64,000 nt of DNA, taken from contig JAFLBD010000003.1 of the NCBI GenBank assembly GCA_017303935.1, positions 124,001 to 188,000 on the forward strand, written 5' to 3'. The DNA is from Armatimonadota bacterium (GTDB lineage: Bacteria; Armatimonadota; Fimbriimonadia; Fimbriimonadales; Fimbriimonadaceae). Position numbers and translations under genes: made by a program. This document shows positions 10,712-13,534 of the stretch, piece after piece; positions within the stretch are counted from its first letter, which is position 1, and each line of letters opens with the position of its first letter. The notes beneath the pieces were generated by a model that was given only the letters and a program-made list of their open reading frames with translations, ran no database searches and was not told the origin of the DNA.

Positions 10712-12133
10712 ATGGTCATGACTCAAGAACTCCTCATCAATGGCGTTTTCTTTGGCGGGCCATGCGACTCTTCGGTGAGCAAGCAGGTTGTCCACTCGCC
10801 TTGGTCGGGGTCCGTCGTCGGCGTTGCGGCGGAAGCGATGTGGCCGGAAGCAGATGCTGCGATTTTCGCGGCAGTTCAAGCGTTCGCTAGTTGGAAGTCA
10901 ACTCCGCGACACGAACGTCAACACCTGTTGGTATCGGTAAGTCAGATGCTGAGGGACCGGCGGGAATTCTTCGCAGAATTGATGGCGGATGAGATTGCGA
11001 AACCATTAGAAATGGGCCGCGCTGAGGTCAACCGCGCTGCGCTAACGTTTCAACTTGCATCCGAACTCCTCAGCGGCCCTGATTTTGAGACAGCAGATGT
11101 GAGCTATGACCCTCGCAGCGAAGGCGTCACGGCAAGAATTCTGAAAGAGCCTGTCGGACCGGCCTTCTGCATCACTCCTTACAATTGGCCGATAAACTTG
11201 GCAGCGCACAAAGTTGCTCCGGCATTGGCTGCGGGTTGCACGGTTGTTGTCAAAGGCTCCGATTCAGCGAGCCTCTGCACCCTCGCACTTGGAAAATTGA
11301 TGAGTGAGTGCGGCTTCCCGCCAGGTGTGATCAACTTCCTGAATTGCGAGCCTTCGGTAGCAGAGAGAATCGCGCTCGACTCACGAATACGCGCTGTTTC
11401 TTTCACGGGCTCTCCGAAGGTCGGTTGGCATCTGAAATCGAAGGTCACCGACAAGCGAGTCTGCCTGGAACTTGGTGGCAATGCGACCGTGATCTTAGAA
11501 TCCACTCCGAACTTAGATTCAGTTCTGGATTCGCTCACCGCTTCTGCCTTTGGTTACGCCGGTCAAATCTGCATCTCAGCGCAAAATCTTTGCGTTGTCG
11601 AGGAGTTGTACGAAGACACCGTGACTGGGTTGATAGAGCGGTTACCCAAAGCCGGGAATCCGCGGGAGGAAGGCGTTTTGTGCGGCCCGCTGATCAGCAC
11701 TGGCGCGCTCCAATCCGTGCAACTTAGGATGACCTCGGCGGGCGGAACGGTTCATGGCGGTGAAGTTGTCAAGCCCAACCTGATGAATCCGGCGATTATT
11801 GACAATCCGCACCGAATGAGTGAGGCGGTTCGAGAAGAGATATTTGGCCCGGTGCTCAACGTGATACCGGTCAAGCATGTAGAAGAAGCGATCAAACTGA
11901 TCAACGGCTTTGATTACGGGATACATGCCAGCATCTTCTCGCAATCCACTGATGTCCAAGAAACGGCTGCACGCGAACTGCAGGTTGGCGGGGTCGTTAT
12001 CAACGATGTTCCGAGTCTTCGATTCGACAACCTTCCATACGGCGGGATAAAGAAGAGCGGGTTCGGGCGAGAGGGTGTTCGATATGCGTTCGACGAGTTT
12101 TCGGAATACAAGACCGTGGTCACTCGCGGTTAA
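10712..12133 (+). CDS. NAD(P)-dependent aldehyde dehydrogenase
   Basis: 473 residues of the ALDH superfamily. The oxyanion Asn is in TPYNWPIN, the general base Glu in LELGGN, the catalytic Cys in GYAGQICISAQN, and the C-terminal EEIFGPVLNV and PYGGIKKSGFGREG blocks are present. The set resembles the lactaldehyde, succinate-semialdehyde and non-phosphorylating GAPDH branches, and the substrate cannot be fixed from sequence. A second ATG at 10718 is possible. The gene is divergent from pyrF and followed 9 bases later by the ThyX-like gene. Confidence 0.92.
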   Translation: MVMTQELLINGVFFGGPCDSSVSKQVVHSPWSGSVVGVAAEAMWPEADAAIFAAVQAFASWKSTPRHERQHLLVSVSQMLRDRREFFAELMADEIAKPLEMGRAEVNRAALTFQLASELLSGPDFETADVSYDPRSEGVTARILKEPVGPAFCITPYNWPINLAAHKVAPALAAGCTVVVKGSDSASLCTLALGKLMSECGFPPGVINFLNCEPSVAERIALDSRIRAVSFTGSPKVGWHLKSKVTDKRVCLELGGNATVILESTPNLDSVLDSLTASAFGYAGQICISAQNLCVVEELYEDTVTGLIERLPKAGNPREEGVLCGPLISTGALQSVQLRMTSAGGTVHGGEVVKPNLMNPAIIDNPHRMSEAVREEIFGPVLNVIPVKHVEEAIKLINGFDYGIHASIFSQSTDVQETAARELQVGGVVINDVPSLRFDNLPYGGIKKSGFGREGVRYAFDEFSEYKTVVTRG

Positions 12134-12142
12134 ATAGAGGCA

Positions 12143-13534
12143 ATGAAGGTCACTCACGTCGCGCTACAGCCCACGGAATCCAGTCAATCGGCGGGACGGC
12201 CTGCGCTGACTCCGGAGCTATTGGCTGCATGCGGCGCACGGTATAGCCGCAACAATGAGGGCCTCGAAGCGATCCTTTCGAAGATCGATCCTTCCAATCT
12301 CGATAAGTCAGTGGACTCTATTTTTAAGATGGTCGACTATGGTCATCAGTCCATTGCAGACATGGCGCCGGTGGCGATGTTCATCGATGGAATTTCACTT
12401 TGGATGGCCTACGCTGTTTGGGGGAGAGTGCCAACCGCGGGAGGGCAGGAATCTTCGACGCGGTATTTGCGACTTGGCAAAGATGATCTGATCGACCCTG
12501 CCGTGTTGGGAATCGCGCCAAGCGAACAGAACACATGGAAGTTCTTGATGAGCGAGTCGCTGAAGGCATACGATTCGGCGATCGAGGCATGGGAAGAACT
12601 CGGCGAAGCACAGCCAGAACTCACTCGCATTCCCCGCTCGCTGCTTGACGATCCAAGCGAAAAAGCTCAAAAGGCAGTCGCGAGGATGCGCCGAAATTAT
12701 GCCTTTGACCGAGCGAGGTACTTCCTTCCAGTCGGGCTCGCCACGAACATGATGTTGGTGATGTCTGCCCGGGCATGGGTTCAGCTCTGCCAATGGCTCC
12801 TGAGTTCACCGGTCGCGGAGGCCAAGCAACTCGGAAACCTCGTAGTGGAAGAACTGGGCTTGGTCGCTCCGAGGTTGTTGCGACATGCAGTGAAGACTGA
12901 AAGTTTTGCTCAAGGCTGGCAGATGGAATTGGATTCCGCAAAGTCCGAATCTCGGCACCGCGAGCTCGCAGAAGGTGAAGCCATAGACGCTCCAACATTG
13001 GAAATTCACACGCCGAGCGATGTCAAAGAGGCGGATATCGTTCATGCCCTTTCGGCACACCCGCACCGATATTCTTACTATGGCGAGCCGCTTGCGCGAA
13101 CTGGCGTCCGATTTGGATGGGATGCGGTTGCCTTGGCCGAGCTTCGGGATTTGAATCGGCACCGAACTGGGACCAAGTATTGCCCTCCCGTTGCGCGGGG
13201 ATTCTATTGCGCGCTGGATGAGGCACCCGCAGGTTCAAAGGTTGCCGAGTTGGTCAAGCATCTTTCTCACCACGGGACGAGCACCAACAGTCTTTCTCGG
13301 CGGGCGCTGGAGTCCAACGATCCGACTTTTCCTTACTGGTTACTACTTGGAACCCAGTTCCGGTTTGAGCATTTCACCACTGCCGATAAGTTCATTTATG
13401 AAGCTGAGCTTCGGACTGGTCTTGGCGCGCATTACCGATACGCAAAGCATCTCCGAGATTCGCTAGGCTTGTGGTATCAACGATTCCCGCAGACGCGAGG
13501 AATGATCCACGAAGGCGCGGCTGAACCTGAATAA
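12143..13534 (+). CDS. Double-length ThyX-like FAD-dependent thymidylate synthase family protein
   Basis: 463 residues, about twice the usual ThyX length, reading as two related halves. Canonical ThyX has one motif, RHRxxSxNExSxRY. Here the N-terminal half has only the second part (GQESSTRYL, residues 101-109). The C-terminal half has only the first part (NRHRTGTKY, Arg339-His340-Arg341). The C-terminal FEHFTTADKFIYEAELRTG and HYRYAKHLRDSLG also look ThyX-like. ThyX makes dTMP from dUMP using methylenetetrahydrofolate and FADH2. Whether this protein is catalytic or a degenerate relative is unclear. A GAGG lies just before the start, and the gene is probably in an operon with the aldehyde dehydrogenase. 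Confidence 0.72.
   Translation: MKVTHVALQPTESSQSAGRPALTPELLAACGARYSRNNEGLEAILSKIDPSNLDKSVDSIFKMVDYGHQSIADMAPVAMFIDGISLWMAYAVWGRVPTAGGQESSTRYLRLGKDDLIDPAVLGIAPSEQNTWKFLMSESLKAYDSAIEAWEELGEAQPELTRIPRSLLDDPSEKAQKAVARMRRNYAFDRARYFLPVGLATNMMLVMSARAWVQLCQWLLSSPVAEAKQLGNLVVEELGLVAPRLLRHAVKTESFAQGWQMELDSAKSESRHRELAEGEAIDAPTLEIHTPSDVKEADIVHALSAHPHRYSYYGEPLARTGVRFGWDAVALAELRDLNRHRTGTKYCPPVARGFYCALDEAPAGSKVAELVKHLSHHGTSTNSLSRRALESNDPTFPYWLLLGTQFRFEHFTTADKFIYEAELRTGLGAHYRYAKHLRDSLGLWYQRFPQTRGMIHEGAAEPE

What the first reader, a model, noticed from the sequence alone, without database searches (positions are those of the whole stretch)
12143..13534. Tandem ThyX-like protein with the signature motif divided between its halves
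Canonical ThyX needs RHRxxSxNExSxRY in one chain. This 463-residue protein has QESSTRY (102-108) in the first half without RHR, and RHR (339-341) in the second half without the Ser/Glu part. ThyX active sites form between subunits, so the two degenerate halves could build a composite site in one chain. Alternatively the protein has a new function.
Basis: partly seen in the sequence, partly recalled or inferred. Interest (0 to 1): 0.6.

Follow-up and report, generated by a model that had tools for sequence, protein, structure and literature searches.

The report
Tandem ThyX with a split active site
This gene encodes two fused, half-degenerate copies of the DNA-building enzyme ThyX whose surviving catalytic residues fit together as one working site; it is probably the bacterium's own thymidylate synthase, and the same design occurs across several bacterial phyla and in large phages.

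Summary
ORF 12143-13534 (+) encodes 463 aa with QESSTRY at 102-108 and RHR at 339-341. A predicted structure (pLDDT 91, pTM 0.89) shows a ThyX fold in each half. Folded alone, the C-half matches solved ThyX at Z 13.7; the next unrelated chains score 2.6. In solved ThyX each site uses three subunits: A gives RHR and R174, B gives S55 and R165, C gives S88, R90 and Y91 (PMC6514825). Here the C-half keeps only the A residues and the N-half only the B and C residues, invariantly in 61 aligned relatives. The motif residues hold in phage homologues down to 24% identity. So two of four sites should be complete and two dead, in a dimer of tandem chains. The genome has no thyA and no short thyX. Of 50 other tandem-bearing genomes none has thyA above cut-off and one has short thyX. 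I conclude that it is a thymidylate synthase of a split-site ThyX variant. Biochemistry is untested. In passing: the genome's second copy, and counterparts in two relatives, lie in a conserved methyltransferase/HD-CE/ORC-CDC6-like/CARF conflict-type cassette.

The parts
12143..13534 (+). tandem ThyX gene, 463 aa
   Evidence: ORF; Pfam Thy1; predicted structure
12143..12931 (+). N-terminal ThyX half, residues 1-263
   Evidence: aligns to M. tuberculosis ThyX 2af6/3gwc, Z about 13 over 211-219 residues
12344..12352 (+). H68-Q69-S70, equivalent of H53/S55 (FAD contact from subunit B in ThyX)
   Evidence: H68 and S70 invariant in 61 relatives; subunit role from PMC6514825
12446..12466 (+). QESSTRY, residues 102-108, equivalent of N85-E86-x-S88-x-R90-Y91 (subunit C contacts to dUMP and flavin)
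   Evidence: Q102, E103, S105, T106, R107, Y108 invariant in 61 relatives and in 32 viral homologues at the key positions
12707..12718 (+). D189..R192, equivalent of E144/R147
   Evidence: invariant in 61 relatives
12770..12772 (+). R210, equivalent of R165 (FAD contact from subunit B); the R174 position in this half is L219
   Evidence: R210 invariant, L219 in 60 of 61
12968..13531 (+). C-terminal ThyX half, residues 276-463
   Evidence: folded alone: pLDDT 91.9; T. maritima ThyX 3g4c at Z 13.7 over 174 residues
13145..13165 (+). R335-D336-x-x-R339-H340-R341, equivalent of R74-Q75-x-x-R78-H79-R80 (subunit A contacts)
   Evidence: R335, D336, N338, R339, H340, R341 invariant in 61 relatives; the 30 short ThyX examined have Q at the D336 position
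13412..13414 (+). R424, equivalent of catalytic R174 (subunit A); the R165 position in this half is D415
   Evidence: strand 404-413 and helix 414-424 correspond to strand 199-208 and helix 209-221 of the N-half; R424 and D415 invariant
10712..12133 (+). aldehyde dehydrogenase-like gene ending 9 bases before the tandem ThyX; neighbour conserved within the genus
   Evidence: adjacent homologue in L122, L035 and L036

Best explanation
The gene encodes the organism's flavin-dependent thymidylate synthase, in a fused-duplicate form. An ancestral ThyX was duplicated and fused, and the four equivalent three-subunit sites of the tetramer then became unequal. The C-half kept only the residues that one subunit gives from the 'A' position (RHR for FAD and dUMP, and R174 for dUMP activation). 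The N-half kept only those given from the 'B' and 'C' positions (GHxS and R165 for FAD; E86, S88, R90 and Y91 for flavin and dUMP). Two tandem chains would form a pseudo-tetramer in which two sites, each made of one C-half and two N-halves, are complete, and the other two have lost their ligand contacts. Given the two-fold symmetries of a ThyX tetramer, this works only if the true dyad of the dimer relates C-half to C-half across the interface that does not build a site. The chemistry is expected to be that of ThyX: methylene from CH2-tetrahydrofolate to flavin N5 to dUMP C5. Shown here: the two folds (predicted models), invariant split residues, genome-wide absence of other recognisable thymidylate synthases. 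Inferred: dimer, stoichiometry of one FAD per chain, activity.
For: Two ThyX folds in one chain: full model pLDDT 91, pTM 0.89; residues 1-263 match Mtb ThyX at Z about 13 and residues 279-460 match T. maritima ThyX at Z 11.8; C-half alone Z 13.7 against 2.6 for the first non-ThyX rows. Subunit roles in solved ThyX: RHR and R199(Mtb)=R174 from A; S71 and R190 from B; S105, R107, Y108 from C (PMC6514825); the PBCV-1 structure likewise takes Q75 and R182 from one monomer and S88/Q89 from another (PMC3498832). The tandem protein splits along these lines without exception in 61 relatives. In 32 viral homologues the motif residues hold in all; R210 in 27 and R192 in 31 of 32. R165 and R174 lie 9 residues apart in ordinary ThyX, yet here one survives in each half. 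Sole synthase: no PF00303 and no short ThyX in the own genome. In 205 genomes of the phylum, 15 have the tandem form, none of those has ThyA (57 of 205 overall do) and 12 of 15 lack short ThyX (Fisher p 0.013 and 5e-5, relatedness not corrected for). In 50 further tandem-bearing genomes ThyA is above cut-off in 0 and short ThyX present in 1 (a few of these are the same genomes as in the phylum survey). Phages carry it, one next to a dCMP deaminase.
Against: No biochemistry. Thymidine kinase is present in the own genome, so salvage could in principle replace de novo synthesis. Q75 is replaced by an invariant Asp (D336), although Mtb ThyX has an acidic residue (E) at the same place (alignment). 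NCBIfam TIGR02170 scores 37 bits, below its cut-off of 87.9. R210 is not universal in viral homologues (27 of 32).
Confidence: 0.8

Rival explanations
1. It is a ThyX-like methylase of another pyrimidine nucleotide (UMP, or dCMP with later deamination), as in the UMP/dUMP methylase PolB, tuned by the Q75 to Asp change.
For: Invariant D336 in place of Q75; PolB is among the structural matches; phage copies could serve base modification.
Against: It is the only recognisable thymidylate synthase in the own genome and in nearly all genomes that carry it; Mtb ThyX has Glu at the same position; PolB matches rank below ordinary ThyX, though by less than 1 Z unit.
Confidence: 0.08
2. The protein has lost ThyX catalysis and serves another or a regulatory role, with thymidine salvaged by thymidine kinase.
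For: The contiguous signature is broken; thymidine kinase is present; the equivalog model is not passed.
Against: The contact residues are invariant over several phyla and phages, which decay would not give; absence of both ThyA and short ThyX in 49 of 50 genomes.
Confidence: 0.05
3. The split residues do form active sites, but entirely within one chain or with a different oligomer from the predicted dimer.
For: pTM 0.89 for one chain means that the placing of the two halves is predicted with confidence without a partner.
Against: Published ThyX sites take contacts from three subunits, which one tandem chain (two halves) cannot supply if geometry is kept.
Confidence: 0.15

Closest known systems
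Canonical homotetrameric ThyX (EC 2.1.1.148; T. maritima TM0449, M. tuberculosis ThyX, PBCV-1 ThyX)
   Same: Fold of each half; all ligand-contact residues are present when the halves are combined; occupies the same metabolic niche.
   Different: Two fused copies; signature divided between them; Asp for Gln at position 75; two of four sites predicted dead.
Longer tandem ThyX family of about 500-580 aa in the same phylum (L128-L132, family 2)
   Same: Same division: TEKSTRY in the N-half, RDxQRHR and ELR in the C-half; N-halves clearly related (hhalign E 1.5e-25).
   Different: C-half less eroded (keeps the R165-equivalent Arg); scores much higher with Pfam Thy1.
Phage thymidylate synthases of about 490 aa (PHROG 36506; Microcystis phage Ma-LMM01 gp020, Tunturi_5 gp50)
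   Same: Same split architecture and key residues; Ma-LMM01 gp020 is described as a ThyX homologue (PMC5780444).
   Different: About 24-30% identical; the split of the motif is not mentioned in the passages read.
Chlamydial ThyX (recalled as about 530 aa; lead only, sequence not examined here)
   Same: C. trachomatis ThyX has been cloned and assayed (PMC3498832); its recalled length would suit a tandem protein.
   Different: Not tested: no chlamydial sequence could be reached with the tools.

Membership tests
ThyX | ThyX fold | tested here: met
   both halves
ThyX | Pfam Thy1 above gathering score | tested here: met
   53.8 bits, cut-off 24.8; 61 of 61 relatives match Thy1
ThyX | contiguous RHRxxSxNExSxRY signature in one domain | tested here: not met
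   motif divided between the halves in all relatives
ThyX | NCBIfam TIGR02170 equivalog cut-off | tested here: not met
   37 bits, cut-off 87.9
ThyX | FAD and dUMP contact residues present, all subunits combined | tested here: met
   S55, E86, S88, R90, Y91, R147, R165 in the N-half; R78, R80, R174 in the C-half
[quoted passage not shown]
   no multimer model or coordinates available; inferred from residue roles
ThyX | FAD/NADPH- and CH2-THF-dependent formation of dTMP | not testable with these tools
   needs an enzyme assay; only indirect genomic support
ThyA | Pfam Thymidylat_synt domain | tested here: not met
   protein matches only Thy1; none in the genome
PolB-type UMP methylase | substrate is UMP | not testable with these tools
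   fold shared with all ThyX; specificity cannot be read from the sequence

The most novel reading that the evidence does not exclude
Beyond the split-site enzyme: accessory copies of this tandem ThyX are a working part of an anti-phage-type cassette. In the window's own genome (second copy) and in two related genera, a tandem ThyX gene lies convergent to a four-gene operon of C5-cytosine methyltransferase, HD-CE protein, ORC-CDC6-like ATPase and CARF protein, whose last three proteins are only about 25-36% alike between cassettes. The enzyme might resupply dTMP, or supply an insulated synthase, when the system attacks nucleotides or DNA.
Probability: 0.4. Interest if true: 0.75.

Novelty: new variant of a known kind. 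Interest (0 to 1): 0.58.

Why it matters
If right, this is a natural experiment in subfunctionalisation of an oligomeric active site. Fusion let evolution erase two of four shared sites and assign each subunit role to one half. That makes the roles of individual ThyX residues testable one at a time in defined positions, and explains why ordinary models under-call this synthase. It also shows that genomes in Armatimonadota, Verrucomicrobiota, Kiritimatiellota and Lentisphaerota that seem to lack a standard synthase have one, and that large phages carry it.

Tried and rejected
Chance resemblance or a single ThyX domain with an unrelated extension: rejected by the C-half model. First guess that R432 was the R174 equivalent: replaced by R424 after secondary-structure and family-2 correspondence. 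Direct profile comparison of the two halves with each other gave nothing, so homology of the halves rests on structure and on comparison with canonical ThyX. Profile comparison of the C-half with canonical ThyX is weak (probability 25%, only around RHR). Plasmid search found no match. Papers on chlamydial ThyX could not be read and the original paper on the three-monomer site is not held. Coordinates of the models were not available in the Python box, so no explicit superposition with FAD and dUMP was done.

Full report
Observation. The ORF at 12143-13534 (+) encodes 463 aa with QESSTRY at 102-108 and RHR at 339-341, as reported. Pfam Thy1 matches residues 24-243 at 53.8 bits; the NCBIfam ThyX equivalog model stays below its cut-off (37 against 87.9 bits). 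By sequence alone only the N-half is recognised.

Both halves are ThyX. An alignment of 61 relatives gave an AlphaFold2 model with mean pLDDT 91 and pTM 0.89. In it residues 1-263 align to Mycobacterium tuberculosis ThyX at Z about 13, and residues 279-460 align to Thermotoga maritima ThyX at Z 11.8 over 172 residues. The C-half predicted alone matches ThyX at Z 13.7 over 174 of 188 residues, with the first unrelated chains at Z 2.6; Foldseek agrees. The high pTM of the whole chain means that the mutual placing of the halves is also predicted with confidence.

Residues. In solved ThyX each site takes RHR and the catalytic Arg174 (T. maritima numbering) from subunit A, Ser55- and Arg165-equivalents from subunit B, and the Ser88/Arg90/Tyr91 group from subunit C (PMC6514825; similar division in PMC3498832). 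Mapped on the tandem protein, the C-half carries R339-H340-R341 and R424 (A role), the N-half carries S70 and R210 (B role) and E103, S105, R107 and Y108 (C role). The same residues are missing from the other half: position 219 is Leu, position 415 is Asp, and the C-half positions of E86/S88/R90 are variable. The retained residues are invariant in 61 of 61 relatives. In 32 homologues on viral contigs, the motif residues are retained in all, R192 in 31 and R210 in 27. Two residues that sit nine apart in ordinary ThyX (R165, R174) survive in different halves, which is what a division by subunit role predicts.

Mechanism. In a D2 tetramer A-B and A-C are related by two different dyads. If the C-half takes role A, both B and C must be N-halves, so the true dyad of a dimer of tandem chains has to be the third one. 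Two sites (A = either C-half) are then complete, and the other two lack all their contacts. This is inference; the dimer was not modelled. The catalytic route is taken to be that of ThyX (methylene to flavin N5, then to dUMP; PMC8316439; PMC5954106).

Genome context. The own genome (2.56 Mb, 99% complete) holds two tandem proteins, no ThyA and no short ThyX; it does have a thymidine kinase. Most relatives in the same family have one short ThyX instead. Over 205 genomes of the phylum, 15 have the tandem form; none of these has ThyA and 12 lack short ThyX. In 50 tandem-bearing genomes reached through genome-contig loci, ThyA is above cut-off in none and short ThyX is present in one, a Rickettsiaceae MAG. 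The tandem protein therefore stands in for the synthase.

Evolution. The window copy groups with those of its genus (100/98) and shares the order mutY-pyrF-aldehyde dehydrogenase-tandem ThyX-cyclase with them. The second copy is a sister of a copy in another genus (100/100). A longer family in the same phylum has the same split with a less eroded C-half. All tandem forms examined share Asp at the Gln75 position within RDxxRHR, against Gln in 30 of 30 short ThyX from relatives, which suggests one fusion origin.

Second copy. The genome's second tandem ThyX (G000:C2:624623-626011) and copies in G133 and G093 lie convergent to a four-gene operon: cytosine methyltransferase, HD-CE, ORC-CDC6-like ATPase, CARF protein. 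Apart from the methyltransferase (61-89%) the operon proteins are only about 25-36% alike between cassettes, so the gene set is conserved, not just one recent transfer. All these ThyX copies keep the full residue set. Of five genomes in the phylum with the ORC-CDC6-like family above cut-off, these three have the tandem ThyX.

Known or new. Databases already label long phage and bacterial proteins of this kind as thymidylate synthase, and the chemistry is not expected to be new. No description of a ThyX whose signature is divided between two fused halves was found in the papers searched. Chlamydial ThyX, of which I recall a similar length, may be of the same kind but could not be checked. I file this as a new variant of ThyX, not as canonical ThyX, because the contiguous signature and the equivalog cut-off are not met.

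Noticed in passing
L173:4682-11012 (G000:C2), L174:4034-10626 (G133), L176:3910-10183 (G093): Tandem ThyX convergent to a four-gene operon of C5-cytosine methyltransferase, HD-CE, ORC-CDC6-like ATPase and CARF protein in three genomes; a conflict-type cassette that seems to include a thymidylate synthase.
   Followed up: partly
L173:11165-12139 and L173:1015-3264: Tyrosine recombinase next to the second ThyX copy and a DUF3854/Toprim protein further off, which suggests an integrated mobile element.
   Followed up: no
L138-L160 (viral contigs up to 479 kb); L170:2980-4398 (Microcystis phage Mvi-JY20, XAI95554.1): Large phages encode the tandem ThyX; the Mvi-JY20 protein is annotated as hypothetical but has the key residues.
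   Followed up: partly
L161-L169: More distant viral tandem proteins (23-28% identity) with RDxxRHR and GQESSTRY or a near variant, lacking most of the conserved ELRTG context; possibly a third branch.
   Followed up: partly
L128-L132 and genomes G044, G053-G057, G083, G084, G130, G155, G156, G160-G162: A second long ThyX family (about 470-580 aa frames) in the phylum; the five sequences examined show the same split signature with a better preserved C-half.
   Followed up: partly
L059 (Rickettsiaceae MAG, G236): Tandem ThyX that groups with phage contig L142 (100/99) in a genome with two tandem-sized copies and a short ThyX; probably phage sequence or contamination in the bin.
   Followed up: no
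L175:9174-10799 (G109): The tandem copy of G109, which also has a short ThyX, is sister to a 479 kb phage contig copy (L140, 100/100) and lies near a chaperonin gene; possible prophage or misbinned phage.
   Followed up: no
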